Positions 1-58,849 of a DNA stretch of 64,000 nucleotides are shown piece after piece. This DNA is from Nereocystis luetkeana (lineage: Eukaryota > Sar > Phaeophyceae > Laminariales > Laminariaceae). The stretch is taken from the NCBI GenBank assembly GCA_031213475.1, contig JARUPZ010000004.1, positions 558,001-622,000 of the forward strand. Direction: 5' to 3'. Under the pieces are notes generated by a model. The model was not told where the DNA came from. It saw only the letters and a program-made list of their open reading frames with translations, and made no database searches. Every line of letters starts with the position of its first letter. The stretch's first letter is position 1. Position numbers and translations under genes: made by a program.

Positions 1-463
1 TGAACCGCTAGCAACTCCAAAGAATGCGCCAACCTCGGCACAGCGATCGTCAACCTCGTCGTCACACTCGAGCGTCTCCCGCCGCCAGACCCCAGCGAGC
101 TAGAGGGACGGATGACGAGCGCGCTCATCCAGGGACCACAGCCTGGCGGTTCCATCGCCAGCGTTGCCTCCACCATACCTACCAACGTGGCCGATGCCGT
201 TCATGCAAGAGTAAGAGGAAAAGGCAAGGGCGCTCGAGTCGGGATATATATTCAGCTGTGAAGGTGGGTCTGACAGCGCCAGGCGTAATCGTGGTAGTGC
301 GCCTGTGGTATTTTCTTGCCGAGATGGGAGGATGAACCTCACGTGTAGCACTGGGGGCCTGATGGTTTATGATCGGCGCATTTTCGTTAGATAGCGGTGA
401 TCAAAACCGCGCGCCGACCAGTGTCGCTCAAACAGTCATTCGGAGTATGGGCTATTAATAGGG

Positions 464-1425
464 TCAGTCACGAAGTACAACACCACGGCAGAACAGTTGC
501 CGTAAAACTACCTTTAGCGATCCCCGAGCTCGACAAAAGTCTCTGGAAATCAACCCTGAATGGAAAATCGCGTCGGACGGCCGCCAGCGAGGGACGGGCG
601 ACACGTCAAACCGGATGGTTCTGACAAGTGTAGGTGCATGATAGGCGGAGCGCAATGTGCGTAACACGATCACTGACCAACATTGTCGCTGCGGCTGGTC
701 GTAAGTATGGCCAAGAGCAAAGGACAACCGCCTATCACGCATTTAACCGTTTGGGCCGTTCGCCACTTACCGCGTGCGGGGGACACTGCGCACCCGAGGG
801 CGGTCACAGGACTGAACAGGTACGCCTTCCCATCCGACCGGTACATGAAGATGCGTCCTCCCACCGCCATGGGCCCAGGGGCGGTAACATGACCCACTAC
901 AAACTCCTCCACATCCGTCCAGCACATGAGGCGGTGTCCTCGCGCCTGGAAGTTAGGTTGGCGCATCTTCTCCTCGTCGACGGGGTGCTGGTACGAATGG
1001 GAGGGGTCACGGCGGCGGTTTGCACCACCGACACCATCACCATCACCATCATCATCATCACCACCGCCACCAGCACCACCACCACCGCCACCGCCACCAC
1101 CATCACCACCACCGCCACCACCATCACCACCACCAACACCGGCACCATCACCACAATCACCGCCATTACCACGGCTAACACCACAAACATCCGGGTTTGG
1201 CCTTTCCCACTGGACCTTGCTCATTTTACGGTTGAAGAAGCACACGCGGCCGTCCTTCGCTTGGAACTCTGTCCAGCCGTGGGGCAGCGGAGGAGGAGGA
1301 GGCCTCTCCCACTGCACGGTGCCCGTTGGGCGGTTGAAGAAATAGGGCCGGCCGTCGGTCGCGTGGTACTCCTCCCAGCCAGGGGGCAACGGAGGGGGGA
1401 CATCGCGTGCTTCCGCCCCCGCCGC
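464..1425 (-). pseudogene. WW-domain protein gene, 3' exons, copy A (frameshifted)
   Basis: The minus-strand exon 1425-771 encodes two tandem WW domains, GWEEYHATDGRPYFFN...QWERP and GWTEFQAKDGRVCFFN...QWERP. In each the two Trp are 21 residues apart, and each has the downstream Pro. A Gly/Asp-rich linker encoded by (CAC)n-type repeats follows, then a segment around RGHRLMCWTDVEEFVVGHV. WW domains bind proline-rich ligands; no enzyme domain is visible. The exon ends at a strong donor (GTAAGT, plus-strand 765-770) in phase 1 and joins in phase to an exon starting at 672. That second exon loses 55 bp at 604 relative to copy B, which shifts the frame and replaces the C-terminus (open to 464). 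No initiator exon was found; the 5' acceptor near 1426 is only moderate. I infer that this copy is decaying. Confidence 0.6.
1020..1185. repeat. (CAC/ACC)n microsatellite inside WW exon, copy A
   Basis: This imperfect CAC/CAT/CGC trinucleotide tract encodes the Gly/Asp linker on the minus strand. The matching tract at 58440-58605 is 12 bp longer and differs in repeat order, so its length has changed since the segmental duplication while the frame was kept. Confidence 0.9.
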
Positions 1426-4019
1426 CTGCGGCCGCGAGAGTGAATTGAGGGACAGTGTTTTGCGGCAAAATATTCAGTCATATGTAAGGAAAGGAAACTA
1501 TTGACAGCAGTAATCCGAAACGGGCAACGTGCGCTGCCAATCACCGATACCAGGTACCTTGATACTTTGGTACTTCGATCGTTTTGAGTATGCGAGCCAG
1601 TCGGGCCCTGCGGATAACTAATGGTAATGGAATGTGACGTGATATGATATGATTCGTACTTGTATTGGATAGTACCGAAGCGAAGTAGGCGTGCGTCGCC
1701 ATAACCTTCCCCCCAAACGTTAGTCACGGCAAACTTTTCCGCGCTCAGATTTCAAGCTATCAGGAACTGTTTTTCCTTTTTCGTCTCCGAAGCATGGGTT
1801 CAGCTCGTGCTTATGGGTGGGTTGGGGTCCTGGGCAACTTCTCGAGGCAGCGGCAGCGAACTACCGTAGCACGGCACATGTCGAGGAAAGGGCGACCACA
1901 CCCGAGCTCTTTCGTTAGAAGGTTCGCTGCCCCTCGCTCGGGCCGCACAGTGGCATCGCATGAAACGATACAGCTTCCCACGTACAGAGCAGGTAGCTTC
2001 CTACGGTGACTTTGATGAGGGTTAGGACGGAAATTTTAGGAACGTTTGCTATTCATATTACAGTATTAATAGTGTCCAAACGGATCTTACATTCGCATCT
2101 AGAGTGGTGTGAGTTTGGGTGGGTGAGCATAATCCATTCATGGCTTGAGCTATGAATAGCGTATTGCACTGTGAATGAATTCATTGTTAATATTTAGGAG
2201 ACGAAGTACTGAACCAGAAAATTCGACGTAGATGTGGACCATCGAAATCGTACGTACGAATACCGATTAGATATCCCTTTTTATCGTTTACAGCACGTAT
2301 CGCTATTGTGGTACATATTGTGTTGGAATAGATAGCGCAGGCTTGCGCTAGTAGTGGCTACACTACCTGGCTGATGTTGGGAAACTGGACAAGAGGTTTA
2401 ACGTTGAAGATGCCGCTTGCGGGCCAGAACAGCAAGATAGCTACGAAATTGTTGAGTCCATGTCCGTACGTGTACTCAAAGACAAGAGCACAGCAGTATA
2501 TCAAAGTAGATCAGATAAATCAGCGTGGCTGCTGCACCTTGGTGTCTCCCAAGTTTAGGAATAGAGTACTGCTCTGCTCTAGAAGCCTACGACATCCAGA
2601 ATACTGCTAAATATACCCTACAGCATGAAATTATGCAGGAGGTCTAAATGGTGCAGAACTCTATTTTCCAGCTCTGGAATGTTCTCAAAACAATACCTAT
2701 GTCGAACAAACGCTCCTAGATAAAGTAACCGCAGAAGCAGTACGTCCTGTTGTGAACAGTCGGTGATTGCTCGCACCGGTGTTTTCCTATGGGACATATC
2801 ACACCTGGTATGTATCAAAGCTACAAGCAAACACAGTGCTGTTACGATGCGCCATGAAGCTGTACGTACTGAACATTCACCACGTCAATAGGCTGCTGTA
2901 AAAAACTGCTGTTGATGCCGAACATTAATCAGACAACGGGATCCTGTTGCCTACCAGGTACCAGCTATCTCTAAACAATCGGTACCGTGTGCAGTAGTAT
3001 CGAACTACAGTATTAATAGCTTCTCGGTCGATATCGATTGCTATCAAATAACAGGCACACCAGTATAGCCAAGTGTATACCTGGAATATAATGCTCCGTG
3101 TGTCGTACTTTACTACTGCTTGGAAGCGCGAGTACAATGTGCGAATCCCGGTATATAGTCAGATAGTCAGACGCTCACCTGGTCGTCGCCCCACCCTTCC
3201 CTAGGCAGCCCTGCCCTCTCCGGACCCAACTGCTCGGTCCCTGCAATACCATACAGTTTGGGGTTTGGAGGACGATTGCCGTGAGCATCGGATACGAGGA
3301 GCAGTCCCGGCTACGTACGCGCTGGGTTAGACTAGGAAGAGGACGGTATATATAACATTAAACCAAAGATGCTTAAACATCCAAGTATAGTACAAGTACC
3401 AGGTATTCCAAGGAGACCGCGAGTTGACCCCGTGACTGACCTGGCCGCCCCTTTTCACTAACATTATTCAAACTTAATAGCTTTGTAAGACCAAGACTAA
3501 AGGGGATGCTGGTCATAAGGCGCATCATAGGTACCCAGACCCAGCGGCTGCTTCGTCGCGTGAGGTAAACAATGGTGCAGTAGGCCAGTGGGTAGCGTCT
3601 CGACACCAACAAGAGGCGTACGAGTAGACGCGCCCAATATGACCCGTCTGTAGTGTGCATTTAACGAATATCATAACCACAGTCATAAAAGACACCCAGC
3701 ACAAGCTTCAAGCAGTTCCCGCCAAAGCCATGGCTGCGGTGTTCTGAATGGGTCATGCCCGTCGCAATACTCGTTCTTGTTTTTTTTTCGAGAACACAAT
3801 CTGGAGCTACTTCTGTACCAGAATATATTACACGAGGTTAGCCCTACTGGGGGCCTCGGATGCCTTCACCCATCGATGTCAGAGGGCAATCGGCCAGAAC
3901 CCTGTACGCACCAGGGACAAGCTAAGTTAAACACCACTTCACCTACTCTGGATAAACTAGACTCAAAACCACTATTACAGTAGTAACCTCTTCGACGATG
4001 AGACAATAGAGAAACATTT

Positions 4020-4330
4020 CGATGCCGGCCACAATAGACTGTGGAAAATGTCTATTGATAGATAATGTCGGTGGCGATAGATGTGGAAACTACCGCTATA
4101 GGAAGCGACAATTATATTGGGGATACTCTGTCTGCCCATAGATAGAGACATTGTCCACCACAGTTTCGTAGATTGCAAACCGTGTCCGTCGATGGTCCTT
4201 GCCGGCCGCAACAGATTGGGTAAGATAAGCAATACCTGGTACATCGATAAGCACTGTTTGCCCACCACAATCCGTTGTGAACCGAGTTCATCGATGGACA
4301 TTGCAGGCCGCAGTAGATGTGCAAGCTATC
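4020..4330. repeat. Diverged tandem repeat (about 130-150 bp), also in copy B
   Basis: Blocks around TGCCCA...CCACCACA..., GTCGATGG.CCTTGC and GGCCGCA.ACAGAT.GG recur two to three times, with strong divergence, across this interval. The same array lies at about 62266-62576. No coding potential is convincing here. Confidence 0.5.
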
Positions 4331-4519
4331 TATGAAAACACGTTGTGGACTTACAGCACAGTATTAATATATCAATACTAATAATACTGCTCTTGGGGAG
4401 AACGGGCTGAAAAATGGTGCACCGAATCTGTACGTACGTAGCGCCAGCGTCTGTCTGATTTTTCTTCGCCTGCCGCTCGATTGATTCTGATCCTCTCTTG
4501 CTACGATACGATACCTTGC

Positions 4520-4838
4520 ACAAATCGGCGGTAATAGGCAACAATAGCCATCGATAGACACCATTGCACAACATTATTATAGGTGGAGGATACGAGTGTA
4601 GTATATTGTGGAAACACCCCCCAATAAAAAGAAAAACTAAAGTCTACGTATTAATATTAATAGTGAATGTTTTACAAGTCGGCGGTAGTAGGCAACAATG
4701 GCCATCGACAAACGCCATTGCACAACATTATTATAGGTGGAGGATACGAGTGCAGTATATATATTGTGGAAACACCCCCCAATAAAAAAATCTATAATCT
4801 GCGTATTCATATTAATAGCGAATATTAATAGTGAGTGT
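4520..4838. repeat. Two-unit tandem duplication, about 157 bp
   Basis: Unit 1 (about 4520-4673) and unit 2 (about 4677-4838) share AGGCAACAATRGCCATCGA, CATTGCACAACATTATTATA and the run GTGGAAACACCCCCCAATAA. The units differ mainly in AT-rich sequence at their ends, where the TATTAATA motif has been gained or multiplied. The pair recurs in copy B (about 62766-63085). Confidence 0.85.
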
Positions 4839-5754
4839 TTTTAGTCAAGAGGGAGAAACAAAGAGTTAACTCTTTCGAATATTGTGATACGAATTATAGA
4901 TTCAGCTGTAACTATATACGTATGCGTGTTTGACAGCTTACATCCAGACAGTGCCGATGGGCAATCCAGTTAATAGAATACCACCCCCCGACAGGCGGCG
5001 GTGCCTGTTGATAGACCCTTGTACGGATCGTACTGCAGTAATTTTTAGTTTTTTCGGGAAGTTCCGGGACACTACTCGTATATATCTGCCGCAGCCAGCA
5101 CGCATTCTCCAAGAACAACAGCACCTGAGGCAGAAATGCGTGTCACCGCTAAAAAGTCGTGCGAACGGCACCCGTTCGAACGAAAACTGGCCAAAAAGTG
5201 CCAACGACACCCGCGAGCGGCAACTGCAAATCTTGAGAGCCGTCAACACAGGGGATGAAACTCTACCCCATCCAGGGCGAAAATGATCCCCTTGCACCTC
5301 TCGGCACTTCACCTATGTACTGCGTCAGGCAAGTGTCATGCTACTTACTGCAGGTACAGCTGCAGCGACGGAAGGAGACACAGGCCAACTCAAGTAAGGG
5401 GCACCAGGGGGATGTCTGTAACCCGGTGCCGGTGATTACCGGCACCGAACTTGCCGGGTAGGGTTCCTCGGAAAACGGAAAACGGCGGTTGGAACTTAAT
5501 CTCCCCTATCCCCAAAATGAAACACCTCCATACTCAATGGAAACCCTAAGTGTTTTCCGGCAGCACAGCAAGCAGCAGAGTACGCGCGAGCAGAGCGAAC
5601 ACAAGATTCCAACCGTATACATATACCCATACTGCAGTTTGATGGAGTCTAACAGGTACGGTATCACCATTAATAGTTAATATTTAATAGTACATGAGTA
5701 CATGCGAATATCATGAAATCATTGCAGAATGCCAGCGCCAAAACACAATTTTTG

Positions 5755-6832
5755 GATTTCGTGTACACGGGTGCACGCGCCATGCCGGCCATGCCATGCC
5801 GCAGTGTAGTCTGTAGATAAAAAATAAACAAACAAATACAAGGGGGGCTTTGCCGCGGCGGGTTGACGCCCGCTCTGGCTCCGCGCATGCTCGTAATGAC
5901 CACGGACGTAGGCAAGTCGGCCGTAAATGCGACACACAGTACTGCCAAGGGTTGGGAACATTTAAAAAAAAATCGTACCTGATTGAAGAGAAAGAAAGCA
6001 CTGGAATCAGATTCGATCAACCAGCAACACCTAAAGTTCGCCGCATACCCGTAATGACCGAGGATGTAGGCAAATGGGGCCATAAGTGCGACATTATTGC
6101 CAAGGTGTACAATACATTAATCCGTGTTCGAGTGCAGAGAGAGAAAAAACTGGAATCAGGGTCAATGGACCAAAAACAAAAAAAAATGTTGGCATCTGAC
6201 TTTATGCCACTTCGCACAATACGTGAACCAATAAGTATGACACAGAGTTTAGTTGGGCACGAAGTACGCGAATAGGCCGACACAAGCGATCCCAATGTCC
6301 CCATCGAGTATGAGTATCCCTTTCACAGCACCCAAAAACGACAAAAAGACACGACCTCTGCTGGATTCGAACCGGGCAAGGGCCAGGTGAAGGTCCAAAC
6401 ACTGGCTGTGCGTTGACTCAACCTGCAGTGCATCTATTAATAGCGTACTGACTGACTGCGCCACAGATTGATGCCTTTCTACAATATATGTACGAGTAGA
6501 CACTTGAAATCAGAACATTTTGTTTTGTGAATAATAACACGGCGATACCTCTCGCCCCCGGGACGCGCTGCGAGTCGGCCGAGGCCGCCCACCCCTGGCA
6601 GGGTCGGGAGGGGCAAGCAGGTGCGGGTGAGGCACGTCCAGCAAACGGCGCACCAAAGAAAGGAGAGGTGGACCTCATCCCAAGTTAGGTCGGTCTCGGT
6701 TCAAAAACTACTATTGTTAACTTAATAGTACAAAATCATCTTCAAGCGACTGAGAGCTAACCAACCTCAAGGACAAAAAAAAAATCCATTTAGTTATACC
6801 AGAGGGTATGACATTTACAACATCTACCTACA
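5755..6832. other. Non-genic stretch with a diverged tandem duplication
   Basis: I see no gene. About 5888-6025 and 6048-6168 are diverged tandem copies (shared CGTAATGACC, GTAGGCAA, AAACTGGAATCAG). About 5838-5905 (AGGGGGGCTTTG...GACGCCCGC) matches about 28098-28165, so it is a fragment of a dispersed repeat. The remaining short frames have no coding character. Confidence 0.6.
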
Positions 6833-7740
6833 TTAAGGTGTTGGGTGTGGTTTAACGGTATGGTATTGCCCGCCTCCATTGTACCAGTATGTCGCTCCAA
6901 TAATCCCAGCAGGGTCTTCTGATGGAGTGGGAAGTGGGACGTCTCTTACTAGGAATCTGCCACGTCTACGGTAGGCGATGGTCGGTTTTCGTCCGGGCAT
7001 ACTTGCGTTATCAACCGGTGGGTACAGGGAGGAGGCTGAACATTCGGGACCAAACCGGTACGTACGTACTGGCCCCAGCACGGGGTTTTAGACATCCCCG
7101 CTATCTACTGCTGTACTGCGGTACGTAGGAATATGTCTACCCTGTACGGGCATCGTTAGCCACGTACCAGATACAAAAACAACTCACCCCATTTCAGCGC
7201 TTCGTTGTTCAAGTCCAGGGAGGGATGCAGTCTCCATACCTCCTCCTGTGCCTCGTGCACCATGTTGAGCAGTATCGCCTCCAGAATTAAAGCAGCTGCC
7301 CCAAAACTGGAGCGGAAATGCCTCTGGATCGTGGAAAGCTCATCAAGAGCACCAGCGACACGGGGGGCGCGGTAAACACCGCCCGCTTCGTAGGGGTTAC
7401 CCCCCCCCAGCCGCTCTTTGCAGACCATGCCGAGGACTGTTTTCCCCGTTGCAAGAAACAGCTCCTGTGCTTTCAGAGACGCTGCTTTTTTATCTGCTAC
7501 TTTGGCCCGCACGCACCAATCAACTCCCTGGTGCAGGCGCATCAGGGCTACGTCCGCGAGGATGCCTTTAGGAGGCTCAGGCTCTGCGCGCCTCATCTCA
7601 ACTGCCGGGTCCAAGCTTTCTATGACGATTGGACAGCGTGGAGTAGGTCGATCGCCACAGAGTTGATCGAGTGGATCCTGCGGTGGGCAACCATGCGGGC
7701 GGAGCGCAAACAGAAGAAGGCAGGCGCCAAACACAGGCAT
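6833..7740 (-). CDS. Two-exon gene, unknown function, possible secretory leader
   Basis: Exon 1 runs 7740-7188 (553 nt) from ATG. Its donor is GG|GTGAGT (plus-strand 7181-7187). Exon 2 runs 7035-6833 after a TGTTCAG acceptor and ends at TAA. The intron is 152 bp, the phase matches (1 + 2 bases restore an Ala codon), and the product is 251 residues. The N-terminus MPVFGACLLLFALR could be a short signal peptide, though the following region is Cys/Pro-rich and a membrane role is not evident. Residues about 50-180 look helical and soluble (KAASLKAQELFLATGKT, ALILEAILLNMVHEAQEE). The C-terminus is basic, then Gly/Tyr-rich (KPTIAYRRRGRFLVRD, YWYNGGGQYHTV). An in-frame TGA lies just before the ATG, so any upstream exon must join within a few bases of it. 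I recognise no family. Confidence 0.55.
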
Positions 7741-10422
7741 TCCTGGTCAGTTTGTACTCTGTACGTGCAATGTGTGGTGCAAGGTATGTAGCACTGGCTG
7801 CGGTAGGCCGTTCACCGCGCACACTCTGCGTCTCTCTGTCACATACAGGGATAGGAACACATGTTCTGGACAAAGTACCCTGTGGTATGTTAAAATAGTC
7901 ACTCGTTCATGAAAAATAGACACTTCGCTCTTGCGACACTACCCTAGACACTTCCCGGAGGCAACCTTAGCATACGTTACTGCTGTATCTTGGTGCGTAC
8001 GTATTGATAGTACGAGTACGCTGATTTCATGCTTTCTTCTTTGAGGTGTGCGATGTGCGTAAGTTATTACGTCTACTGTTTCGTGTCTGTGTATTTTTTC
8101 TCGTGAAGTATTCTTCCTCTCCAGAGTTATTGGAGCCTGCCCTGTGACCACGGACTAGAATTTCGGCGATGGGTTATTATTAGAATGAAAACAACAACAA
8201 TAGAGCACGTATTTTAAACGATACATGACCACAACGAGGTACCAGGAACAGCAGTAGTATGCAGCGGCGGACAACATGCGCGTATGTGCCAGGCTATTCG
8301 GGTTTGCACGTATTGTTTACCAGCTGGCATCCGGTTCCCATTTGGTGCTTTGACCCGGCAGTGGGTCAATTCCCATAAGGGACCCTGCTCCCTTAGTGGC
8401 GCAGAAATACAAAAAACCCTCCGAAGGAGTTGCCGGAGACCCACCTGGTACCCTGATCCCATTTGGCAACATGTAGGCCATTCCTATCTTCAACAACTCC
8501 TGCTATACATACAACAGTATATATTGAATTCACGTGCAAGTCCGACAAGCCTGACACGCACGTACTACGTGCAAGTTCTCCGCCTGCGAGTATTAATATT
8601 AAAATCAATGGTGTGAGATCACACCTAAATACCTATCTCGAGAACCGCATAAATCTCGACAAAAAAAGTACAGATACCTATCTCGAGAGCCGCATAAATC
8701 TCGACAAAAAAAGTACAGCCTTGCGTACCATAAAGGGGACTTCCCAAACTTACTACAAGTACCTGGCGGAGGGGACGGGGTATCATATGCCCTCGCGTAA
8801 ACGTGTCAAAGAGGGGCACATACTCGCGCTCTGCTTTTGACCACTTTCGTTCATCGACAACACGTTCACAAAACACACACCCAAACTGAATGGTTGGGAA
8901 GGCAGGGGCCATGGGAGTTCGTCAAACCCCATAGGTTTTGATTTCGAGTCGATTCGACGGAGTGCATGGGCGTCGCCGCCGACGAAGAGCAAAGTCCCTC
9001 TTCAAGTTATTTTTTTACGGGGGTGTCCTCCTTTTCGTTTAATGTCCTACTGGGTACCGTATATAACAAGACGATAGGTAACATAGTGGGGGCCGTCATA
9101 TGGGTCATGGATACCCGTTGGTAGGGTCTACCCGGTTCTACCCGCATAAAATCCGGGCATCCAAGGATATCTACCCGGGTACACACGGGCATGGTGGGTG
9201 TTTGGCGATATACTCAAGCTGGCCGAACACTCAGCGGGCATATTGTCTCAATCCCAGGGCATGTAATATTACCGATGGGTCGAATGGTATTGGGGAGAAG
9301 GTAATACAGCAGAATAAACATGAATTCACATACACCCGTTGGTAGATCATGTACCCGCGTCTAGGTTACCCGGGTATTCAACAATTCCATAATACACAGG
9401 TACCCTAACGAATACCAGATACACCTTCCCACACTTGCAGAGCCTAAGCTTACAAAGCTCGAGCATCGACCAATTCCGTCCGAAATGTTTGACTAATCGA
9501 CCCACTTCGGTCCAAGTCGCATCCGACAGCAGACAACAGTCGATAGTCGACGTAGATACGCGCAAAACTACCAGGTACTCGTTATTCAAATCCAAATGTC
9601 AACAAGTACCAAGATCGAGCAAACAATCACAATCCTTAGTTTGGGTCATCGGTACGTAATAATAGAGCAGTCCCCATCCGGACTCTGGGGGTCAGCAGCA
9701 TGGGTTCACATCCCCCATTCTCCGGTTTTGTCTTTCTGGATATTTTAGCGAGGGGTGAGTGGGTTAGTTGATGGGTGTGGGTGAGAGTGATCGTACTATG
9801 TTACTTAAAGGTTGTTTTTAGTCCGCTGGTTTTGCAACGTACAAATATTAATAGTGTACGAATAATACTCGTATCCGTTCTCCAAGGTATCTTATCATAT
9901 TATTATTACTACTAGTTTACTAAATTGCGAAGAATACGTAGTTTCGTAAGTAACTCGAAAGTTGGTAACACAATCTAGAGACACCAAACATCATCACTCT
10001 CAGCCAATCCCTTTTCCTCCCTCCCTGCGTGTAACGTGTGCGTGCAGTGTATATGTCGTGCTTCCTGTGTATGTAGCCTGTACCCATTCATGCGAATACT
10101 CGTACAATGTGATACCTGGTAAACACATATGAGCATGCAAAAAAAAAACACGAATAAAACACATCTCGTTGTAGAAATGCACATGTTTAATCGGATTAAT
10201 TCCGGTTGCTCTCACGCTGGATCGACGGATGCGGCTATTTGATCCTGTCCGCCAGACTCATTACCGGATCAGTTTCCAAGATTAGTGCCTTTGTTTCAGA
10301 GTTCAAAACGGAAGAGTCCCAGTTCATCTATCTTTAGATCTTGCGTGAGTCGTCCGTGTCATGTACCTGATATTTCTATACTTCAAATCCCCACTCATAC
10401 AGGTGTAGCTTTGCCCACGCAC
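7741..10422. other. Non-genic stretch with small repeats
   Basis: No convincing gene. About 8020-8200 matches about 19820-19990 (CTCCAGAGTTA..TTGGAGCCTG, GACCACGGACT) and ends in a short CAA-rich tract, so it is a retroposon-like repeat. 8631-8718 is a two-unit 45-bp tandem repeat (ACCTATCTCGAGARCCGCAT). About 9110-9370 is rich in TACCCGGGT-type blocks. Confidence 0.6.
8020..8200 (+). repeat. Dispersed retroposon-like repeat, copy 1 (CAA tail)
   Basis: This shares TTTGAGGTGT, CTCCAGAGTTA, GGAGCCTGYCCTG and GACCACGGACT with about 19820-19990 in the same orientation and order. Both copies end in AACAACAA-type sequence. The family is unknown; a LINE or SINE 3' end with a CAA tail would fit. Confidence 0.6.
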
Positions 10423-14725: not shown

Positions 14726-14899
14726 GAGTCGACGAGGGAAGAAAAGGCTGAAATCTTCTCGCGATAAAAATGAAGGCACGTACCGTAGCGGGAAGGGGGG
14801 AGACGAGCCTGCTATGTGACCCCGGATCTGAGTTACGAGTTGGAAGGAGAGAGAGAAGAAGATGGGCGAAGATAATAAATGGGAGGAGCAAAAAAAAAG
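14726..14899 (+). mobile_element. SINE 3' module, copy 1 (no tRNA head)
   Basis: This matches the last 175 bp or so of the full SINEs at 17326-17674 and 35728-36064, beginning at GAGTCGACGAGGGAAGAAAA and ending in an A-rich tail. The tRNA-related head and A-rich middle are missing. The breakpoint is close to that of the copy at 22179-22368, which suggests 5' truncation at a preferred site or a separate headless subfamily. Confidence 0.85.
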
Positions 14900-16400: not shown

Positions 16401-17129
16401 CAGCTAGCTGTCTACAGACAGTTATTGTTTCAAAAGGGTGCGCAGCTAGCTGCAGGCAGACAGCTATTATTGTTGTGAGAAGCTGAGCAGCTAGCTGCCT
16501 ACAGACAACTATTGTTTTAAAGGGCTGTGCAGCTAGCTGCCTAGAGACAGCTGTTGTTTCAAAAGCCTGCTGTCTGAAGACAGCTATTGTTTTGAAAAAC
16601 TGCGCAGCTAGCTGCCTACAGACTGCTATGGTTTTGAGAAGCTACGCAGCTAGCTGCGTACAAACAGTTACCAGGTATTGTTTTAAAGGGCTGCGCAGCT
16701 CGCTGCCTACAGACAGCTAGTGTTTCAAAAGGCTGCGCAGCTAGCTGCCTGCAGGCAGCTAAATGCCAAACTCAGCTATTGTCAGCTACTACTACCTACA
16801 GACAGCTGTTATAGTTGAAGTTTTGAGAAGCTGCGCAAGAGGGTGCGTGAACATCTTTAACGTGTGCTTGTAGCATCGTTTTCCGTTGTTTTTGGTGTAG
16901 GATAAAGCTCATTTCCATCTATCCAAGATCGAATGCACACATACGTTGGATACAAATTCATCGGGCGGAGGCAGGACAAGGCAACCGATAAAAGCACTGA
17001 TACGATCTGCGACAAACAAAACGAGTGCTTGACGGACGCGGATACGATTGATTGACAGATCACACCAAACCAGAGTTACTACTACCGATTCATACAGGAG
17101 TTTCCACGCGAGTGTGCCGGGATATTTTG
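16401..17129 (+). repeat. Foldback-like inverted repeat, left arm
   Basis: Most of this arm is subrepeats of about 50 bp (GCGCAGCTAGCTGCCTACAG, CAGCTATTGTTTTAAAAGG). The inner 270 bp are unique. Its reverse complement is collinear, unit by unit, with 17234-18504, so the pair forms one large imperfect palindrome with a 104-bp centre. Long inverted termini built of short tandem units are the hallmark of foldback elements. No transposase is visible. Unlike the right arm, this arm lacks the SINE and several TATTAATA/TACCNGGTA motifs. Confidence 0.9.
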
Positions 17130-17325
17130 TGTAGCCCAAGCGTGTTAGCTGCCGCGAGGTGTGGTGTGCGTGTAGTGTGGATGTGGTATTAATAGCTGTA
17201 GCTGATTCTGAAACAGCAGAGCTGTGATCTGTTCAAAATATCCTGGCACACTCGCGTGGAAACTCCTATTTGAATCGGAAGTAGTAACTCTGGTTTGGTT
17301 CGATCAGTCAATCAATCGTATCAAG

Positions 17326-17674
17326 CCGGTCGCCCCGGTGGTTCAAGTGGTTAACCTCGAATTCTACTTGTTTGAGTCCTGGGTTCGAGCCCTAGGAGGG
17401 TCGGACTTTGACTTTATTTGCAAAAATAAAAAAAAAGGGATTCAATTGTTGAGAGCGCCTTGCAGCGTGGGTAGGCACAATTCGATGCGAGTCGACGAGG
17501 GAAGAAAAGGCTGAAATCTTCTCGGGATAAAAAAATGAAGGCACGTACCGTAGCGGGAAGGGGGGAGAAGAGCCTGCTATGTGACCCCGGATCTGAGTTA
17601 CGAGTTGGAAGGAGAGAGAGAAGAAGATGTGCGAAGATAATGAATGGGATGGAAAAAAAAAAAAAAAAAAAAAA
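17326..17674 (+). mobile_element. tRNA-derived SINE, full-length copy 2
   Basis: The head has a pol III A box (TGGTTCAAGTGG) and B box (GGTTCGAGCCC), 5' to an A-rich linker, a unique body (GAGTCGACGAGGGAAG ... ATGTGACCCCGGATCTGAG) and a 22-base poly(A). This is the standard layout of a tRNA-derived SINE, mobilised by a LINE in trans. The left palindrome arm gives the empty site (ATCAATCGTATC then CGTCAAGCAC), which proves insertion here. No clear target-site duplication is visible. The head is not a functional tRNA gene, since it continues directly into the body. Confidence 0.92.
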
Positions 17675-17906
17675 CGCACCCGTCAAGCACTCGTTTTGTT
17701 TGTCGCAGATCATGTCAGTGCGTTTCTCGGTTGCCTTGTCCTGCCTCCCCCCCGGTGAATTTGTATCCAACGTATGTGTGCATTCGATCTTGGATAGATA
17801 AAAATGAGCTTCATCCTACACTAAAAACAACGGAAGACGATGCTACAAGTAGATGTTCACGCACCCTCTTGCGCAGCTTCTCAAAACTACAACTATAACA
17901 GCTGTC

Positions 17907-17907
17907 T

Positions 17908-17972
<65 letters not shown>
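17907..17972. repeat. (TAG)n microsatellite
   Basis: This is about 22 uninterrupted TAG units, grown from the short tract at the homologous place in the left arm of the inverted repeat (about 16790-16800). Confidence 0.97.
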
Positions 17973-18609
17973 TAGTTGTAGTAGCTGACAGTAGCTGAGT
18001 TGGGCCTGTAGCTGCCTGCAGACAGCTAGCTGCGCAGCCTTTTGAAGCAATAGCTGTCTGTAGGCAGCTAGCTGCGCAGCCCTTTAAAACAATACCAGGT
18101 AGCTGCTTGTACGCAGCTATTAATAGCTGCGTACCCTGGTAGCTTCTGAAAGCAATAGCTGTCTGTAGGCAGCTAGCTGCGCAGCTTTCTAAAACAATAC
18201 GAGGTAGCTGTCTTCAGGGAGCAGGCTTTTGAAACAGTAGCTGTCTCTAGGCAGCTAGCTGCACAGTCCTTCAAAAAAATAGTTGTCTGTACGAAGCTAC
18301 CTGCGTCTAGGTAGCTGCGTAGCTTCTCAAAACGATAGCTGTGTGTAGACAGCTATTAATAGCTGCGCAGCCTTTTAAAACAATACCTGGTAGCTGTCTG
18401 CAGGCAGCTATTAATAGCTGCGCAGCTTCTCAAAACTATAGCTGTCTGCCTGCAGCTAGCTGCGCAGCCTTTTGAAACAATAACTGTCTGTAGACAGCTA
18501 GCTGCGCAGCTTCTAGGAAGAGTAGCTGTCTGCAAACAGCTAGCTGCGTAGCTTCTCGAAACAGCAGTAGTAGCTCTCTGCGAGACAGCTGACCGCTATC
18601 GTAGCTGAA

Positions 18610-20236: not shown

Positions 20237-20926
<690 letters not shown>

Positions 20927-21234
20927 CCTCATCCCATTTATGATCTTCGCACATCTTCTTCTCTCTCTCCTTCCAACTCGTAACTCAGATCCGGGGTCAC
21001 ATAGCAGGCTCTTCTACCCCCTTCCCGCTACGGTACGTGCCTTCATTTTTATCGCGAGAAGATTTCAGACTTTTCTTCCCTCGTCGACTCGCATCGAATT
21101 GTGCCTATACCCACGCTGCAAGGCGCTCTCAACAATTGAATCCTTTTTTATTTTTATTTTTGCAAATAAAGTCAAAGTCCGACCCACCTGGGGCTCGAAC
21201 ACAGGACTCAAACAAGTAGAATTCGAGGTTAACC
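20927..21234 (-). mobile_element. tRNA-derived SINE, copy 3 (nearly full)
   Basis: The reverse complement matches 17326-17674 from the A/B-box head to the body. The 5' end lacks about 20 bp and joins a different dispersed repeat at 21235. The tail is the (AAAT)n tract at 20240-20926. The B box reads GTTCGAGCCCC. Confidence 0.92.
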
Positions 21235-21664: not shown

Positions 21665-21768
21665 GGGGTTAATAGGGCCTATGGTATACACAAAAAAATA
21701 CTACCTGGTATATATTTACATATTTTTACTAACAATATTCGGTCCTATTTACTATGCCCCCCCGTAAT
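21665..21768 (-). mobile_element. Palindromic MITE, copy 1 (with half-copies around it)
   Basis: One end is GGTCCTATTTACTATGCCCC followed by CCCGTAAT. The other end is eroded. The loop contains TACCTGGTA, absent from copies at 22014 and 23656. Half-copies of the same inverted repeat lie at about 21554-21580 and 21783-21831. Confidence 0.7.
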
Positions 21769-22013: not shown

Positions 22014-22119
22014 ATTACGGGGGACCGTAGTTAATAGGACCAAATATTGTTGGTAAAAATGATTAAATATATATGTTTTATGGATACCATAGGTCCTATT
22101 AAATATGGCCCCCCGTAAT
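22014..22119. mobile_element. Palindromic MITE, copy 2
   Basis: This is a 106-bp element with about 28-bp inverted ends: ATTACGGGGGACCGTAGTTA at the left and its complement CCCCCGTAAT at the right. It surrounds an AT-rich loop (TATTGTTGGTAAAAATG). It has no coding capacity. Confidence 0.85.
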
Positions 22120-22178
22120 GGTGTAATAGTATCCCCAACTAAACAACTGAGGCTCAAAAGGGTTTGGTAATACGACCC

Positions 22179-22368
22179 TTTTTTTTTTTTTTTTTCGCTC
22201 ATCCCATTTATTTTCTTCACACATCTTCCTCTCTCTCTCCTTCCAACTCGTAACTCAGATCCGGGGTCACATAGCAGGCTCTTCTCCCCCCCTTCCCGCT
22301 ACGGTACGTGCCTTCATTTTTATCGCGAGAAGATTTCAGCCTTTCCTTCCCTCGTCGACTCGCATCGA
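22179..22368 (-). mobile_element. SINE 3' module, copy 4 (no tRNA head)
   Basis: Reverse complement of the SINE body with a poly(T) (22179-22195) as its tail. It ends at CTCGTCGACTCGCATCGA, so the tRNA head is missing, as in the copy at 14726. Confidence 0.88.
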
Positions 22369-22478
22369 CCCTTATCGTCTTATTGCAGAAATAGCACCCA
22401 TGTATGTGTCATCCCTTTGACACTAACGTAGCATAATTGCTGAAACACGCGAGCCGCTGTTTCTACGTCCGAGTAGCT

Positions 22479-22593
22479 ATTACGGGGGGGGGCATAGTTA
22501 ATACGACCAAATATTGTCAGTAAAAATGGTTAAATATAATAGATACCTGGTAGGTGTGTATCTATACCATAGGTCCTATTAACTATGGTCCCT
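22479..22593. mobile_element. Palindromic MITE, copy 3
   Basis: The left end is ATTACGGGGGGGGCATAGTT, preceded by TA. The right end is GGTCCTATTAACTATGGTCC with a decayed terminus. The loop carries a TACCTGGTA not present in copies 2 and 4. Confidence 0.8.
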
Positions 22594-23655: not shown

Positions 23656-23764
23656 TAACGGGGGACCATCATAGTCAATAGGACCGAATATTGTTCGTAA
23701 AAATGGTCAAGTATATAGGTTTTTATGTATACGATAGGTCCTACTAACTATGGTCCCCCGTAAT
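23656..23764. mobile_element. Palindromic MITE, copy 4
   Basis: The left end is TAACGGGGGACCATCATAGT and the right end is CTAACTATGGTCCCCCGTAA, followed by TA. The loop TATATAGGTTTTTATGTATA lacks the TACCTGGTA seen in copies 1 and 3. Confidence 0.85.
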
Positions 23765-23931
23765 AGTAGGCTCTTTCTCATTCGTGGGCCCATACCTGTA
23801 TGTCTCGAACTGAGCCAAGGAGGTCCTATTACAATCTGGGAGAAATAATATTTTTAGGTTGGTAGGCTGTTCAGGTATTTTGGTTCCTGTCGGAATCAAG
23901 GTACGGGCGGAGACCCAACCCAACCCCTGGC

Positions 23932-30427: not shown

Positions 30428-32362
30428 GTATCGCGTCTACCTCGCAGGCAAATACTTCGGCATGTCACCACGGTCGTGGGGATTGGCACAGGGCTTGAAG
30501 CGTAGAACTGATCCACGCCGGCAAGCATCCGCGCCGGGTACATCGGAAGGAAGATCCAATTACAGTAGCTTTGCCCCGAGAGGAGATCCGTTCGGGGTGT
30601 CCGCTGAGGAGCAGGGGCGCGAACGATATCGTACGCGCGCTGCTGGCGGTCCGTCGCCACGTCGCAGTAGGCGAGGTGGTCGCGGGCCAAGCTCTGGTGG
30701 CCGGCTACTCCAGCACGCTCGAAAATCGTGAGAGGGAGGCGTGACAACCGACCCACAAGTACCTCGTTGGGAGCCGAACCCGTGGCGGCGCTGACCGAAT
30801 TGTTGTACGCTAATTCGACGTGAGGGAGCTGTTCATCCCAGTTGTTGTGGAGCTCGTTGACGACCATTGCCAGCATCTGAGCCATCGAGTGGTTTACACG
30901 TTCCACCCCACCGTTGCCGTTTGGGTGGTAGGAGCTGGTGGCAATTGTTCGAACCCCGAGAAGCTGATAGATACGGCGTGCGAAAGCTTGGAGCAGAAAT
31001 AGAGGCCGTTGTCCGAGAGGATGCTGCGCGGGTATCTCCAGATGGGAATATACCTGTTGATGAGAACGTGAGCCGTGCCCTCAGCGGCGAACTCTGCCGC
31101 TGTGACGGCGTACATGTCGGCTCGAGTCATGGCGTGGTTTGCACGTTCCACCCCGCCGTTGCCGTTTGGGCGGTAGGAGATAGTGGCAATTGTTGGAACC
31201 CCGAGAATCTGTTATTGGGCATGCGAAAGCTTGGAGCAGAACTGGAGGCCGTTGTCCGAGAGGATGCTCCGCGGGCATCTCCAGAGGGGAATAAACCGGT
31301 TGATGAGAACGTTAGCCGTGCCCTCAGCAGTGAACTCTACCGCTGCGACGGCGTACATGTCGGCTCGGCGGCTGAAACGATCAGTGAAAAGCAAGATATA
31401 GGAATTTTCCCGAGGCGTCACTGGGAGAGGGCCAAAATAGTCGATGCTGACGGCGATGCCGGGCCCTTCTGGCAAGGACATTGTGATGGTGGGCCGCCGG
31501 ACCGTCTGCCGTGACGTTTTCCGTGCTTGGCACTTCAAGCAGCTGCGTAGCCACCACCGGGTGCAGATGCTCATATCGACCCACCAGCAGAAACGCTCGA
31601 GCATATGTAGGGTGAGCGCGATTCCTAGGTGGCGCAGGAAGCCGTGGAATGGCACGCCTGCATGACCCAGGGGTGCATGAGCAGCGGCACATAATTGCGA
31701 ATAGGCTTGTCGTTCAATAAACATGCCGTACGACCCACCGGGCGTTCCGTGTCTGACGCAAGGGGGGAAGACGGCTGGCGGACGAGTAGAACAATACCCG
31801 CGTCGGTGGTGTGCAAGCGGCCTTTGGTAGCCATCTCCTGAACCTCCGAAAAGGGAGGGCGCTGGTGCGAAGGGAAACACGACAAAAACTCGGCTGGCAA
31901 AACGTCCCGCCGGCCAAGAGCTATGTAGCGCATGGAGGCGTTGCACGCGGGCTCGGCCTGTTGTTCCCGAGCCCAGTCGGCGTGTGAATAGCGCCCTGCG
32001 GAATCACCGAACGGAAATTCGGCGGCTGCGCCGAGGGCGTCCAAGTCGGTCGTGGTGACGGGCGGTGCGTCAGTTGGCGGCGGAAGCCGTAAAAGAGGAG
32101 TTCCCATGGGCTCGGCGCGGTCACGGTCGAACGGGATGGGTACAATCGGGGCCGATGAAGCGGGAGGAGCCGGGGGCCAAAAAGACGGGTGCGGGTGGTC
32201 GCGGCCGTGGCGCTCGCGGCGGGGTGATAGCACGCCGGGGTGATGATCTAAGGGCCCCGCCAGACCCAAAGCCATGATCAACAGCACGCGGCGCGGTGCC
32301 AGCGGCGGTGGCTGTTCGTCGGCGCGTCCGAGTGGAGATGCGGCCCGAAGACGGCAGAACAT
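30289..32362 (-). pseudogene. Gypsy integrase with upstream spacer, broken
   Basis: The spacer frame 32362-31625 (SHADWAREQQAEPACNASMR) shifts near 31650 into 31946-31212. That frame has the zinc-binding relic (HAPLGHAGVPFHG ... CLKCQ), the first catalytic Asp in VSIDYFGPLP and the second in SILSDNGLQF, and then stops at 31212. A diverged second copy of the segment RADMYAV to NHAM follows in tandem (about 30890-31128 after 31133-31374). A further frame at 30906-30289 carries ERVNHSMAQMLAMVVNEL (the third catalytic acid) and AYNNSVSAATG. An internal deletion lies near 30600. Confidence 0.88.
30890..31374 (-). repeat. Diverged tandem duplication within integrase, about 240 bp
   Basis: Unit 1 (31133-31374) and unit 2 (about 30890-31128) share GCAATTGTT.GAACCCCGAG, GCGAAAGCTTGGAGCAGAA, GAGGCCGTTGTCCGAGAGGA and CGGCGTACATGTCGGCTC. 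They differ at many positions, so this is not an assembly echo. The duplicate repeats the SDNG catalytic block, and both units lie in one frame before the later frameshift. Confidence 0.92.
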
Positions 32363-32375
32363 TCAGAGGCGCCGG

Positions 32376-32623
32376 GGCAGACGCGGCCGGATCATTGATC
32401 ACAGCGGAACCTTTTCCCTGTAAAGTGCTTGTCAGGGGAGGAGCGCGCTGGGCGACAATCGTCGCTGCAGCGGGGACTTCTGAAGAGCCCTGACCTGAAG
32501 GGGCAGACGCAGCCAAAGCAGTGATCACGGCGGAATCTTCTCCCTGTAAAGTGTTCGTCGGGGGAGGAGCGCGCTGGGCGGAAATCATCGCTGAGGCGGG
32601 GGCTTCTGCGGAGCCCTGGTCGC
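32376..32623 (-). repeat. Two-unit tandem duplication in gypsy spacer, about 126 bp
   Basis: Units at about 32376-32498 and 32499-32623 each contain CCTGTAAAGTG, GGGGAGGAGCGCGCTGGGCG and a GCGGGG(A/G)CTTCT block. On the minus strand both read AQRAPP.T.TLQG..SAVI..-like peptide. The copies have diverged by substitutions but keep the same length and frame. Confidence 0.85.
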
Positions 32624-32959
32624 CCCCGGAGGGTACGGCAAAAACCGAAGCGAAAAGCGGTGTTGGCGATGGGTGAAAAAACCCTCAAGCTAAGATGGCG
32701 ATCGACGGTGGCGACGGAAGCAGAGACACCAGCGACGAATCTCCCCGAAAGAGCAGAGAGGTCGTCAATCCTCATACGTGGCCCGTGTGCGCGAAAATCG
32801 CGAAAGTCCGAAGAGGTTGAAGGCAGCCCACCCAAGACGGCACTTTCGGTGCGGGGCACCATTCCCCCCAAACCTACACCGGGGTTCGGAGAAGAGCGAG
32901 TGCGAAGCCCGCAGGCTCGGATGTGGAAGATACGGCCGTCCTTGTCGGGGGTGAGGCGG

Positions 32960-34286
32960 CTAGACCCACTGCGGTTCTTCTGTGGCGGGCTCCGGCAAGC
33001 GGAAGAGAAAATCAGCATTTCCGTTGGCGCTGCCCTTGCGGCACTCGAGGGTGTAGTCGAACGCGGTGAGGAACTCGAGCCACCGCTGGACTCGCGCGTT
33101 GTGGTCCCCTACCTTGTCGATGCTCTCAAGTGCTTTGTGGTTCGAAAATACACGAAACCTCATGCCCCATAGGTGGCCTCGGAGTCGTTTGATGGCCCAG
33201 ATAATACTGCCAGCTTCCAGGTCCAACGGGGTCCAGCGCCTCTCGGAATCGAGGGTGGCGCGGCTGGTATAAGCAATGGGCTGTACCGAGCCGTCCGGTT
33301 GTTCTTGTTTTAGCGCAGCACCAAAACCGTCGACGCAGGCGTCACAGTACACGTGGAAGGGGCGGGAGCCGTCGGCTACAGCATCCCAGTCCGGACAGAC
33401 CAAAATTGGCGGGGCAGCGAGCTCGGCGGGGATCTGGTGAACGATAACTTCCACGGTCGGCGTAAAGATGTACTTAACCCCACCCCGGAGGCGGACAGTG
33501 AGAGGGTGGATCCGTTTGAAGAGGTCGGGTAGGAATTTGCGACAATATCCCACGCCGCCCATCAGCGCACGGACCTGTTTGAGGCTCTTGAGCATGTGCA
33601 TTTTCACCAAAGCCGAACCTTTTTCCGCATTGGGGCGTATACCCGCGGGCGAAGTGGAGTGATCCAGAAAATTAGCGTTCGTGGCGCCGAGGCGAGCCTT
33701 CGAGGGGGAGAACGCGAGGTTGTGTTTGCGCAGGCGTTCGAAGAAGGCTCCTATCGTCTTGACGTGGGCCGTCGGATCAGAGTCGAAGACAATCACATCA
33801 TCTAGGTAGGCCGCCACCTGTGCCAGACCTTTAAAGGCTTCGTTAATCACTGTGATAAACTAGCCGGGCGAAGCACTGCAGGCTTGGGGCATGACGAGCC
33901 ACTCGTTAGAGGTCCGTAGGAGTGCAAAACGCCGTGAGAGGGACGGTGTCCTTGTGCGCGGTAATCTGGTGAAACGAGGAGACCAAATGGAAGAGAGAAA
34001 AAAAACGTCCCTTCCCCAGGGAGTCGAGGACTTGGTCCACGCAAGGAATGGGCAGCTGGTTGAGGTTGCTGATCTGGTTGAGTTTCGTATAGTTCACGGT
34101 GACCCGAACGCGTACAGACTTCTTCGGGATGGCCACCAGCGGGATCGAGTACGGACAGGTCGAGTGCTGGATCAGACCTGCCGCCAGATACTGGTCCAAG
34201 GTGGCCTCCACTTCCTTGGCCAGGATGGGATTGATGCGATGCGGCCTGGGCGTGACAGCAGCGTTTCCTTCCGGGACCGAAATCAC
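32960..34286 (-). pseudogene. Gypsy reverse transcriptase and RNase H, inactive
   Basis: RT fingers/palm: the frame 34286-33906 holds VNYTKLNQIS, QLPIPCVDQV and FSLFHLVSSFHQI. In motif A the invariant Asp is replaced by His. One extra base near 33906 breaks the frame, and a TAG interrupts it near 33865. The frame 33850-32960 then carries YLDDVIVFD (motif C intact) and the thumb. RNase H follows, with VYCDACVDGFGAAL and LDLEAGSIIWAIKRLRG, but FSNHKALES has Asn where the catalytic Asp is expected. Two catalytic losses plus frame damage mean a long-dead copy. Confidence 0.92.
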
Positions 34287-35727: not shown

Positions 35728-36064
35728 CCGGTCGCCCCGGTGGTTCAAGTGGTTAACCTCGAATTCTGCTTGTTTGAGTCCTGGGTTCGAGCCCCAGGTG
35801 GGTCGGACTTTGACTTTATTTGCAAAAATAAAAAATGATTCAATTGTTGAGAGCGCCTTGCAGCGTGGGTAGGCACAATTCGATGCGAGTCGACGAGGGA
35901 AGAAAAGGATGAAATATTCTCGCGATAAAAATGAAGGCACGTACCGTAGCGGGAAGGGGGGAGAAGAGCCTGCTATGTGACCCCGGATCTGAGTTACGAG
36001 TTGGAAGGAGAGAGAGAAGAAGATGTGCGAAGATAATGAATGGGATGAGAAAAAAAAAAAAAAA
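35728..36064 (+). mobile_element. tRNA-derived SINE, full-length copy 5
   Basis: The head CCGGTCGCCCCGGTGGTTCA with B box GGTTCGAGCCCC, A-rich linker, body and 16-base poly(A) are nearly identical to 17326-17674. It lies between the gypsy pol start and the candidate 5' LTR, so it inserted after the retrotransposon. Low divergence from copies 2 and 3 marks a recently active family. Confidence 0.93.
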
Positions 36065-57353: not shown

Positions 57354-57899
57354 TGAACCGCTAGCAACTCCAAAGAATGCGCCAACCTCGGCACAGCGAT
57401 CGTCAACCTCGTCGTCACACTCGAGCGTCTCCCGCCGCCAGACCCCAGCGAGCTAGAGGGCTGGAGGACGAGCGCGCTCATCCAGGTACCACAGCCTGGC
57501 GGTTCCATCGCCAGCGTTGCCTCCACCATACCTACCAACGTGGCCGATGCCGTTCATGCAAGAAGAGTAAGAGGAAAAGGCAAGGGCGCTCGAGTCGGGA
57601 TATATATTCAGCTCTGAAGGTGGGTCTGACTAGCGCCAGGCGTAATCGTGGTAGTGCGCCTGTGGTATTTTCTTGCCGAGATGGGAGGATGAGCCTCACG
57701 CGTAGCACTGGGGGCCTGATGATTTATGATCGGCGCATTTTCGTTGGATAGCGGTGATGAAAACCGTGCGCCGACCAGTGTCGCTCAAACAGTCATTCGG
57801 AGTATGGGCTATTAATAGGGTCAGTCACAAAGTACAACACCACGGCAGAACAGTTGCCGTAAAACTACCTTTAGCGATCCCCGAGCTCGACAAAAGTCT

Positions 57900-58849
57900 C
57901 TAGAAATCAACCCTGAATGGAAAATCGCGTCGGACGGCCGCCAACGAGGGACGGGCGACATTGTGAGCAAACTCCAGGGCGCGCAGAAAATTTTCCAGCG
58001 CACTGACCATGTCCAGGTCAAACCGGATGGTTCTGACAAGTGTAGGTGCATGATAGGCGGAGCGCAATGTGCATAACACGATCACTGACCAACATTGTCG
58101 CTGCGGCTGGTCGTAAGTATGGCCAAGAGCAAAGGACAACCGCCTATCACGCATTTTAACGTTTGGGCCGTTCGCCACTTACCACGTGCGGGGGACACTG
58201 CGCACCCGAGGGGGGTCACAGGACTGAACAGGTACGCCTTCCCATCCGACCGGTACATGAAGATGCGTCCTCCCACCGCCATTGACCCAGGGGCGGTAAC
58301 ATGACCCACTACAAACTCCTCCACATCCGTCCAGCACATGAGGCGGTGTCCTCGCGCCTGGAAGTTAGGTTGGCGCATCTTCTCCTCGTCGACGGGGTGC
58401 TGGTACGAATGGGAGGGGTCACGGCGGCGGTTTGCACCACCGACACCATCACCATCACCATCACCATCATCACCACCGCCACCAGCACCACCACCACCGC
58501 CACCGCCACCACCATCACCACCACCAACACCGGCACCAACACCGGCACCAACACCGCCACCACCGGCACCATCATCACCATCACCGCCATGAACACGACT
58601 AACACCACAAACATCCGGGTTTGGTCTTTCCCACTGGACCTTGCTCATTTTACGGTTGAAGAAGCACACGCGGCCGTCCTTCGCTTGGAACTCTGTCCAG
58701 CCGTGGGGCAGCGGAGGAGGAGGAGGCCTCTCCCACTGCACAGTGCCCGTTGGGCGGTTGAAGAAATAGGGCCGGCCGTCGGTCGCGTGGTACTCCTCCC
58801 AGCCAGGGGGCAACGGAGGGGGGACATCGCGTGTTTCCGCCCCCGCCGC
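57900..58849 (-). CDS. WW-domain protein gene, 3' exons, copy B
   Basis: This is the counterpart of 464-1425. Exon 58849-58183 (667 nt) carries two WW domains and a Gly/Asp linker four residues longer than copy A. A donor GTAAGT follows in phase 1. The next exon, 58084-57900, starts after a TCAG acceptor and supplies the two bases needed, continuing with the frame TLRSAYHAPTLVRTIRFD then LDMVSALENFLRALEFAHN, and stops at TAG (57900-57902). That C-terminal stretch is helical-looking and absent from copy A. In copy A the base equivalent to the stop reads CAG rather than TAG, so the B stop may itself be a new truncation. Upstream exons and the start codon are not identified. The function is unknown beyond probable binding of Pro-rich peptides. 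Confidence 0.6.

What the first reader, a model, noticed from the sequence alone, without database searches (positions are those of the whole stretch)
16401..18504. TA-flanked micro-insertions (TA-CCWGG-TA and TA-TTAA-TA): probable excision footprints of unseen transposons
The two arms of this inverted repeat align unit by unit. At homologous places one arm has a bare TA and the other an expanded motif. CAGC-TA-GCTG (16650-16651) against TATTAATA (18118-18125). GCG-TA-G (16659-16660) against TACCCTGGTA (18132-18141). CAA-TA-GCTGTCTTCAG (about 16585) against TACGAGGTA (18198-18206). CAGC-TA-GCTG (16492-16493) against TATTAATA (18409-18416). In every case TA becomes TA-N4..6-TA, so the TA is duplicated and a short palindromic core added. 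Tc1/mariner-type elements insert at TA and leave a few terminal bases between two TAs on excision (established for that superfamily). The cores CCWGG and TTAA do not match any footprint I know.
Basis: partly seen in the sequence, partly recalled or inferred. Interest (0 to 1): 0.88.

Follow-up and report, generated by a model that had tools for sequence, protein, structure and literature searches.

The report
Transposon excision scars across algal genome
A probable brown-alga genome is full of tiny scars at TA steps that look like what jumping genes leave when they cut themselves out; a likely source of one scar type was found in the same genome, while the source of the commoner type is still missing.

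Summary
In aligned repeat copies they are length changes from a bare TA: a bare-TA partner was seen for 5 of 21 TACCWGGTA and 3 of 24 TATTAATA sites, but 1 of 330 and 1 of 403 other TA-N5-TA and TA-N4-TA sites (the three TATTAATA sites all lie in the window's own inverted repeat). The motifs prefer different target contexts. A candidate donor for TATTAATA is a ~105 bp MITE, TA-TTACGGGGG...CCCCCGTAA-TA: its insertion with TA duplication is shown by empty sites, it shares the TAC-TA context, and its ends TT+AA would leave TA-TTAA-TA. Four of 16 aligned MITE copies carry CCWGG inserts at three TAs. No CCWGG donor was found in about 0.33 Mb. Best reading: excision footprints of TA-targeting cut-and-paste transposons; likely for TTAA, likely by analogy for CCWGG. 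Excision itself was not observed. A new variant, in scale and uniformity, of a known kind.

The parts
16401..17129 (+). Left arm of the long inverted repeat that holds the finding; outer part built of about 42-bp units
   Evidence: Inverted pairs I1, I2, I3, I7, I10, I13, I17; sequence
17234..18504 (-). Right arm of the inverted repeat, interrupted by a dispersed repeat at about 17326-17667
   Evidence: Same pairs; interruption
16669..16677 (+). TACCAGGTA, left arm; faces 18093-18101 (shared by both arms)
   Evidence: bare TA in two of its aligned partners
18093..18101 (+). TACCAGGTA, right arm
18118..18125 (+). TATTAATA against bare TA at 16651-16652
18132..18141 (+). TACCCTGGTA against bare TA at 16643-16644
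17187..17194 (+). TATTAATA between the two arms
18198..18206 (+). TACGAGGTA (one base from TACCAGGTA) against bare TA at 16585-16586
18298..18313 (+). TACCTGCGTCTAGGTA, a 14-bp insertion between TAs
18354..18361 (+). TATTAATA, bare TA in four aligned partners
18384..18392 (+). TACCTGGTA, bare TA in four aligned partners
18409..18416 (+). TATTAATA, bare TA in five aligned partners
21668..21768 (+). TTAC-MITE copy with TACCTGGTA at 21702-21710
   Evidence: 10 bases longer than bare copies there; the pairwise alignment read this site as substitutions
22014..22122 (-). TTAC-MITE copy, bare at the CCWGG-bearing TAs
22478..22592 (-). TTAC-MITE copy with TACCTGGTA (plus strand) at 22544-22552
   Evidence: 12 bases longer than bare copies there
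23658..23767 (-). TTAC-MITE copy

Best explanation
The motifs are excision footprints of TA-targeting cut-and-paste DNA transposons that work like the Tc1/mariner/pogo group. Shown: they arise by insertion of 6 or 7 bp at a TA, with the TA duplicated, in preferred target contexts, at genome scale. Shown: a ~105 bp MITE with ends TTAC...GTAA inserts at TA with TA duplication and prefers the context in which TATTAATA sits. Inferred: when it is cut out, two bases of each end stay behind, so TA becomes TA-TT-AA-TA. Inferred: a second family with ends beginning CC leaves CCWGG. Two routes fit: a 3-nt remnant CCA on one side and 2 nt on the other (CCA+GG or CC+TGG), or 5-nt overhangs CCAGG from both flanks that anneal with one central mismatch. 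Why the donor of CCWGG is not seen: it is rare, extinct or simply not in the sampled 0.33 Mb.
For: Genome-wide excess over reversed controls. Unbiased indel catalogue headed by these two insertions. Bare-TA partners in 5 of 21 and 3 of 24 sites against 1 of 330 and 1 of 403 controls, both control exceptions being one change from TACCAGGTA. TACCAGGTA, oriented by its core, has matching preferences on both sides: A at -6 and T at +6, little T before and little A after the TAs. MITE flanks fit the TATTAATA context better than the CCWGG context, 28.6 bits over 20 ends. One TA seen bare in five copies, MITE-filled in one and TACCTGGTA in one. CCWGG inserts in 4 of 16 aligned MITE copies at three TAs, two of them exactly 7 bp, the others with 3 and 5 further bases. 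Opposite-orientation abutting pairs, 19 of 59 listed.
Against: No excision seen and no donor for CCWGG. No site with filled, empty and footprint alleles of one element: at the TA the MITE and the CCWGG belong to different families. Length change for TATTAATA rests on one repeat. TATTAATA's symmetric context is symmetric by construction, since the word is its own reverse complement. Three TATTAATA sites behave as substitutions. Abutting sites are 12 times commoner than random TA use and two thirds are in the same orientation, which leaves room for slippage or local copying.
Confidence: 0.68

Rival explanations
1. The 7-bp unit is itself what is written in: an undescribed enzyme or repair process inserts CCWGG plus a copied TA, with no larger element ever present.
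For: No CC-ended donor found; very uniform core (CCSGG once in the window); abutting pairs 12 times over random.
Against: The sister motif TATTAATA has a plausible donor with matching ends and target context; footprints of this layout are established for the Tc1/mariner group (PMC7913693, PMC1925063, passages).
Confidence: 0.17
2. Tandem slippage or microsatellite-like growth of a 7-bp unit.
For: 15,917 abutting pairs (control 2); 40 of 59 listed are in the same orientation.
Against: 19 of 59 are in opposite orientation; most sites are single; bare-TA partners lack any unit to slip on; TACCAGGTA has flank preferences out to 6-7 bases.
Confidence: 0.05
3. The words are binding sites or other functional DNA motifs kept by selection, as proposed for TACATGTA in Phytophthora.
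For: Palindromic form; an oomycete motif of like form and abundance was read so (PMC3520976, passages).
Against: They come as insertions that duplicate the TA and sit in MITEs and repeats. Position relative to genes and conservation were not tested here.
Confidence: 0.07
4. Chance or base composition.
For: An order-5 Markov model, which already contains most of each word, expects 5.7 and 14.0 in the window.
Against: Observed 25 and 29 exceed all 60 order-5 simulations; reversed controls; paralog control.
Confidence: 0.01

Closest known systems
Caenorhabditis elegans Tc1 excision footprint TA-CATG-TA
   Same: Two bases of each element end between two TAs, the layout proposed here for TA-TTAA-TA (motif named as a Tc1 footprint in a passage of PMC3520976; the TIR start CAGT is recalled).
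   Different: There rare, per that passage; here about 93,000 TATTAATA sites against a control of 10,689; no excision shown here.
Stowaway MITE and Osmar5 footprints in grasses (PMC1925063, passages)
   Same: Short pieces of the terminal repeat, 2-4 bp beside one TA and 1-2 bp beside the other; several outcomes per site.
   Different: Varied and asymmetric there; here one nearly uniform symmetric core. The MITE here does not begin CTCCCTC, the mariner/Stowaway start given for rice in PMC4423477 (passage).
Vertebrate Tc1/mariner transposons such as ZB and Sleeping Beauty (PMC7913693, passages)
   Same: TA target; palindromic target preference; footprints of 2-4 bp given for the group, 0-3 bp for ZB.
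   Different: Core of 5 nt for CCWGG; no donor or transposase tied to it.
Phytophthora motif-1 TACATGTA (PMC3520976, passages)
   Same: Abundant TA-flanked palindrome in another stramenopile, upstream of 12,070 genes in three species.
   Different: Its authors set the footprint reading aside because of abundance and conservation; not retested here.
pogo superfamily (DDE_1), present in stramenopiles (PMC7386202, passages)
   Same: TA target duplication; a DDE_1 element with TIR CAGTGGGGGGCCC lies in this genome.
   Different: The MITE shares only GGGGGGCC at TIR positions 5-12 with it; ends TTAC against CAGT.

Membership tests
Tc1/mariner/pogo-type excision footprint: TATTAATA | length change at TA with the TA duplicated | tested here: met
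   3 of 24 paralog-aligned sites have a bare-TA partner, 1 of 403 controls; all three in one inverted repeat
Tc1/mariner/pogo-type excision footprint: TATTAATA | core equals the terminal bases of a resident TA-flanked element with the same target context | tested here: met
   MITE ends TTAC...GTAA; contexts agree
Tc1/mariner/pogo-type excision footprint: TATTAATA | filled, empty and footprint alleles at one site | not tested
   Only filled and empty seen; the allele survey pattern did not complete
Tc1/mariner/pogo-type excision footprint: TACCWGGTA | length change at TA with the TA duplicated | tested here: met
   5 of 21 against 1 of 330; 4 of 16 MITE copies
Tc1/mariner/pogo-type excision footprint: TACCWGGTA | resident donor with ends CC...GG flanked by TA | tested here: inconclusive
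   None repeated in about 0.33 Mb; one 49-bp hairpin in L020
MITE (TTAC family) | short, terminal inverted repeats, target duplication, many copies, no coding | tested here: met
   ~105 bp, TA duplication against empty sites, 24 intervals in 328,023 bases; coding was not scanned, only size argues against it
Stowaway MITE | TIR beginning CTCCCTC | tested here: not met
   TIR begins TTACGGGGG
pogo superfamily as mobiliser of the TTAC MITE | autonomous DDE_1 element with the same TIR | tested here: inconclusive
   One DDE_1 element with TIR CAGTGGGGGGCCC, partial likeness only
Tc1 family (DDE_3 transposase) as mobiliser | DDE_3 transposase in the genome | tested here: not met
   0 matches, 30 candidates scored; mariner Transposase_1 was asked once and not answered

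The most novel reading that the evidence does not exclude
Footprints of TA-targeting transposons are the main source of abundant TA-flanked palindromic words in this genome, about one CCWGG scar per 140 TA steps, and by extension in other stramenopiles, where such words have been read as regulatory motifs. Within this, CCWGG may record a transposase whose cut is staggered by 5 nt, giving one uniform scar; that sub-claim is less likely than the whole.
Probability: 0.35. Interest if true: 0.86.

Novelty: new variant of a known kind. Interest (0 to 1): 0.68.

Why it matters
Footprints are usually studied one excision at a time. Here they would be numerous enough to serve as a genome-wide fossil record of excision, with target contexts, relative ages and repair outcomes. 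182,395 sites on an estimated 25 million TA steps is one per about 140. It also bears on a recorded doubt: TACATGTA in Phytophthora was judged too abundant to be a footprint (PMC3520976). If the reading here is right, abundance alone does not exclude footprints, and TA-flanked palindromes in stramenopile promoters should be retested by asking whether they arise by length change.

Tried and rejected
Chance or composition: rejected. Point substitution as the general origin: rejected by paralog states and the MITE alignment. DDE_3 transposase: 0 matches. TIR search in ten 3.5-kb DDE_1 loci gave nothing clear; four 8-kb stretches gave one pogo-type element. CC-ended repeated TIR element: none found. 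TACAGCAGTA near the L020 hairpin is scattered, not a family. TACCATGGTA looked enriched but is a palindrome counted on both strands, 3 sites. TACCAGTA: 25 of 44 sites are one satellite in L024. The MITE word is absent from viral contigs. TACCAGGTA as a word in papers: 119 papers, 20 listed, nothing relevant in the titles and abstract starts shown.

Not run, because the genome search did not complete: the allele survey at GGGAGTAC-TA-TGTAACTGCC, mariner Transposase_1 (PF01359), the count of the L020 hairpin word, and a DNA search with that repeat.

Full report
Setting. The window is G000:C4:558001-622000 of an assembly of 465,085,209 bases in 1,987 contigs. A DDE_1 protein of this genome finds, among named proteins, Ectocarpus sp. 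first (34-62% identity); closer hits, up to 94%, are unnamed. A brown alga is the likely source; that is inference from one protein.

Observation. The finding lies in a long inverted repeat, left arm 16401-17129, right arm 17234-18504, with about 42-bp units in its outer part. The motifs are not confined to this repeat: 28 TACCWGGTA and 37 TATTAATA in 64 kb, against about 0.7 and 0.6-2.4 from order-2 and order-3 Markov models; the CCSGG version occurs once (both strands). Without the second copy of a segmental duplication there are 25 and 29, above all 60 simulations at orders 2, 3 and 5. Genome-wide: 182,395 TACCWGGTA (pattern read backwards 1,744) and 93,112 TATTAATA (10,689).

Length change. 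I fetched 20 stretches of 10 kb at 1-Mb steps along contig 1 and aligned them, five of the eight loci and the window with themselves: 827 alignments. Among insertions of at least 4 bases with TA at both ends, TACCAGGTA led (14 alignment observations), then TATTAATA (11). The TACCAGGTA cases come from the window and from L009, L012, L014 and L010/L017; the TATTAATA cases come only from the window's inverted repeat. Control: among sites with an aligned partner and at least 7 of 10 matching flank bases on each side, a bare-TA partner was seen for 5 of 21 TACCWGGTA, 3 of 24 TATTAATA, 1 of 330 other TA-N5-TA and 1 of 403 other TA-N4-TA. The two exceptions, TACGAGGTA at 18198 and TACCAGTA in L014, are each one change from TACCAGGTA. 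Against a clean picture: 16 of the 24 TATTAATA sites lie in the two copies of the segmental duplication (two of these also show one-substitution partners), three in L021 differ by substitution, and several TACCWGGTA sites align with partners that are neither bare nor equal.

Target context. Oriented by its core, TACCAGGTA (79 unique sites) has A at -6 (0.49) and T at +6 (0.49), A or T at -7 and +7, little T before and little A after the TAs. TATTAATA sits in TAC-TA-GTA; its symmetry is built in because the word equals its reverse complement, but the preference for TAC is not. Such contexts are usual for transposase targets.

Candidate donor of TTAA. The most widespread TA-led 13-mers in the sample belong to a ~105 bp MITE, TA-TTACGGGGGACCATAGTTAA...GGTCCTRTTAACTATGGYCCCCCGTAA-TA, with 24 intervals, some of them fragments, in 328,023 bases; that sample includes loci picked for TACCWGGTA or DDE_1, so it is not random. 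The MITE inserts with TA duplication: at GGGAGTAC-TA-TGTAACTG five repeat copies are bare, one (L003) holds the MITE, and one (L012) holds TACCTGGTA. Twenty flanks of MITE ends fit the TATTAATA context better than the CCWGG context by 28.6 bits in sum. Two bases of each end between the TAs make TA-TT-AA-TA.

CCWGG. In an alignment of 16 of these MITE copies four carry CCWGG at three different TAs where the others are bare; two inserts are exactly 7 bp (L039, L026), two are 3 and 5 bases longer (window 21702, 22544). Pairwise BLAST had read window 21702 as substitutions; the multiple alignment, with gap costs that I set, reads it as insertion. These events are younger than the copies they sit in. 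From (78 exact TACCAGGTA sites; 104 one-mismatch sites other than TACCTGGTA, about 66 expected) I estimate a mean age of roughly 5% substitution. No repeated TA-flanked element beginning CC was found; one perfect hairpin TA-CCAGGTACTACAGCAG...CTGCTGTAGTACCTGG-TA (L020:388-440) has fitting ends but was seen once. The geometry is open: remnants CCA+GG or CC+TGG, or 5-nt overhangs annealing with a central mismatch. TACCATGGTA (3 sites) against no TACCTAGGTA leans to ends beginning CCA, on few cases.

Abutting sites. TACCWGGTACCWGGTA occurs 15,917 times (control 2), about 12 times the 1,330 expected if sites fell on random TAs. Of the 59 plus-strand places listed, 40 are in the same and 19 in opposite orientation. 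Opposite pairs do not come from slippage; the excess of same-orientation pairs means slippage, local re-insertion or biased repair may add to them.

Transposases. DDE_3: 0 matches, 30 candidates scored. DDE_1: 28 matches, 48 candidates scored. One lies in an element with TIR TA-CAGTGGGGGGCCCTATATAGTGCAGG, L041:3651-6262; GGGGGGCC at positions 5-12 is shared with the MITE. That the MITE is pogo-related is a lead, not a result. TACAGTA, which CAG ends could leave, is above expectation (31 against 9.4; 85 against 38).

Literature. Passages only were read in PMC7913693, PMC1925063, PMC3520976, PMC4423477 and PMC7386202; all others were seen as listings. Eight searches listed no description of CCWGG footprints or of footprints on this scale in brown algae; nothing beyond those searches is claimed. 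The nearest precedent is motif-1 TACATGTA of Phytophthora, which its authors did not take for a Tc1 footprint because of its conservation and abundance.

Verdict. TTAA: probable footprint with a candidate donor. CCWGG: insertion at TA shown, excision inferred, donor unknown. The kind is known; the scale and the uniform scar are the new part.

Noticed in passing
window 1-5754 and 57354-64000: Segmental duplication: 95.9% identical over about 3.0 kb and 99.86% over 2.8 kb, the second copy separated by about 0.8 kb not in the first.
   Followed up: partly
window 17326-17667; also 20905-21234, 22179-22368, 35728-36064, 14726-14898: Dispersed repeat, 93-96% identical between copies, with a tRNA-like stretch and an A-run, SINE-like (boxes recalled, not tested); ARAGORN and Rfam found nothing in the window.
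   Followed up: partly
window 31212-33850, minus strand: Retrotransposon remains: integrase and reverse transcriptase/RNase H domains.
   Followed up: no
window 58082-58813, minus strand: ORF with two WW domains inside the duplicated region.
   Followed up: no
L020:384-444: Perfect 57-bp TA-flanked hairpin with inner ends CCAGG...CCTGG, a possible single CCWGG-family element.
   Followed up: partly
L024, about 323-9313: Tandem satellite with a period of about 345 bp.
   Followed up: no
L041:438-3598: Long, nearly perfect inverted repeat of about 3 kb just beside the pogo-type element.
   Followed up: no
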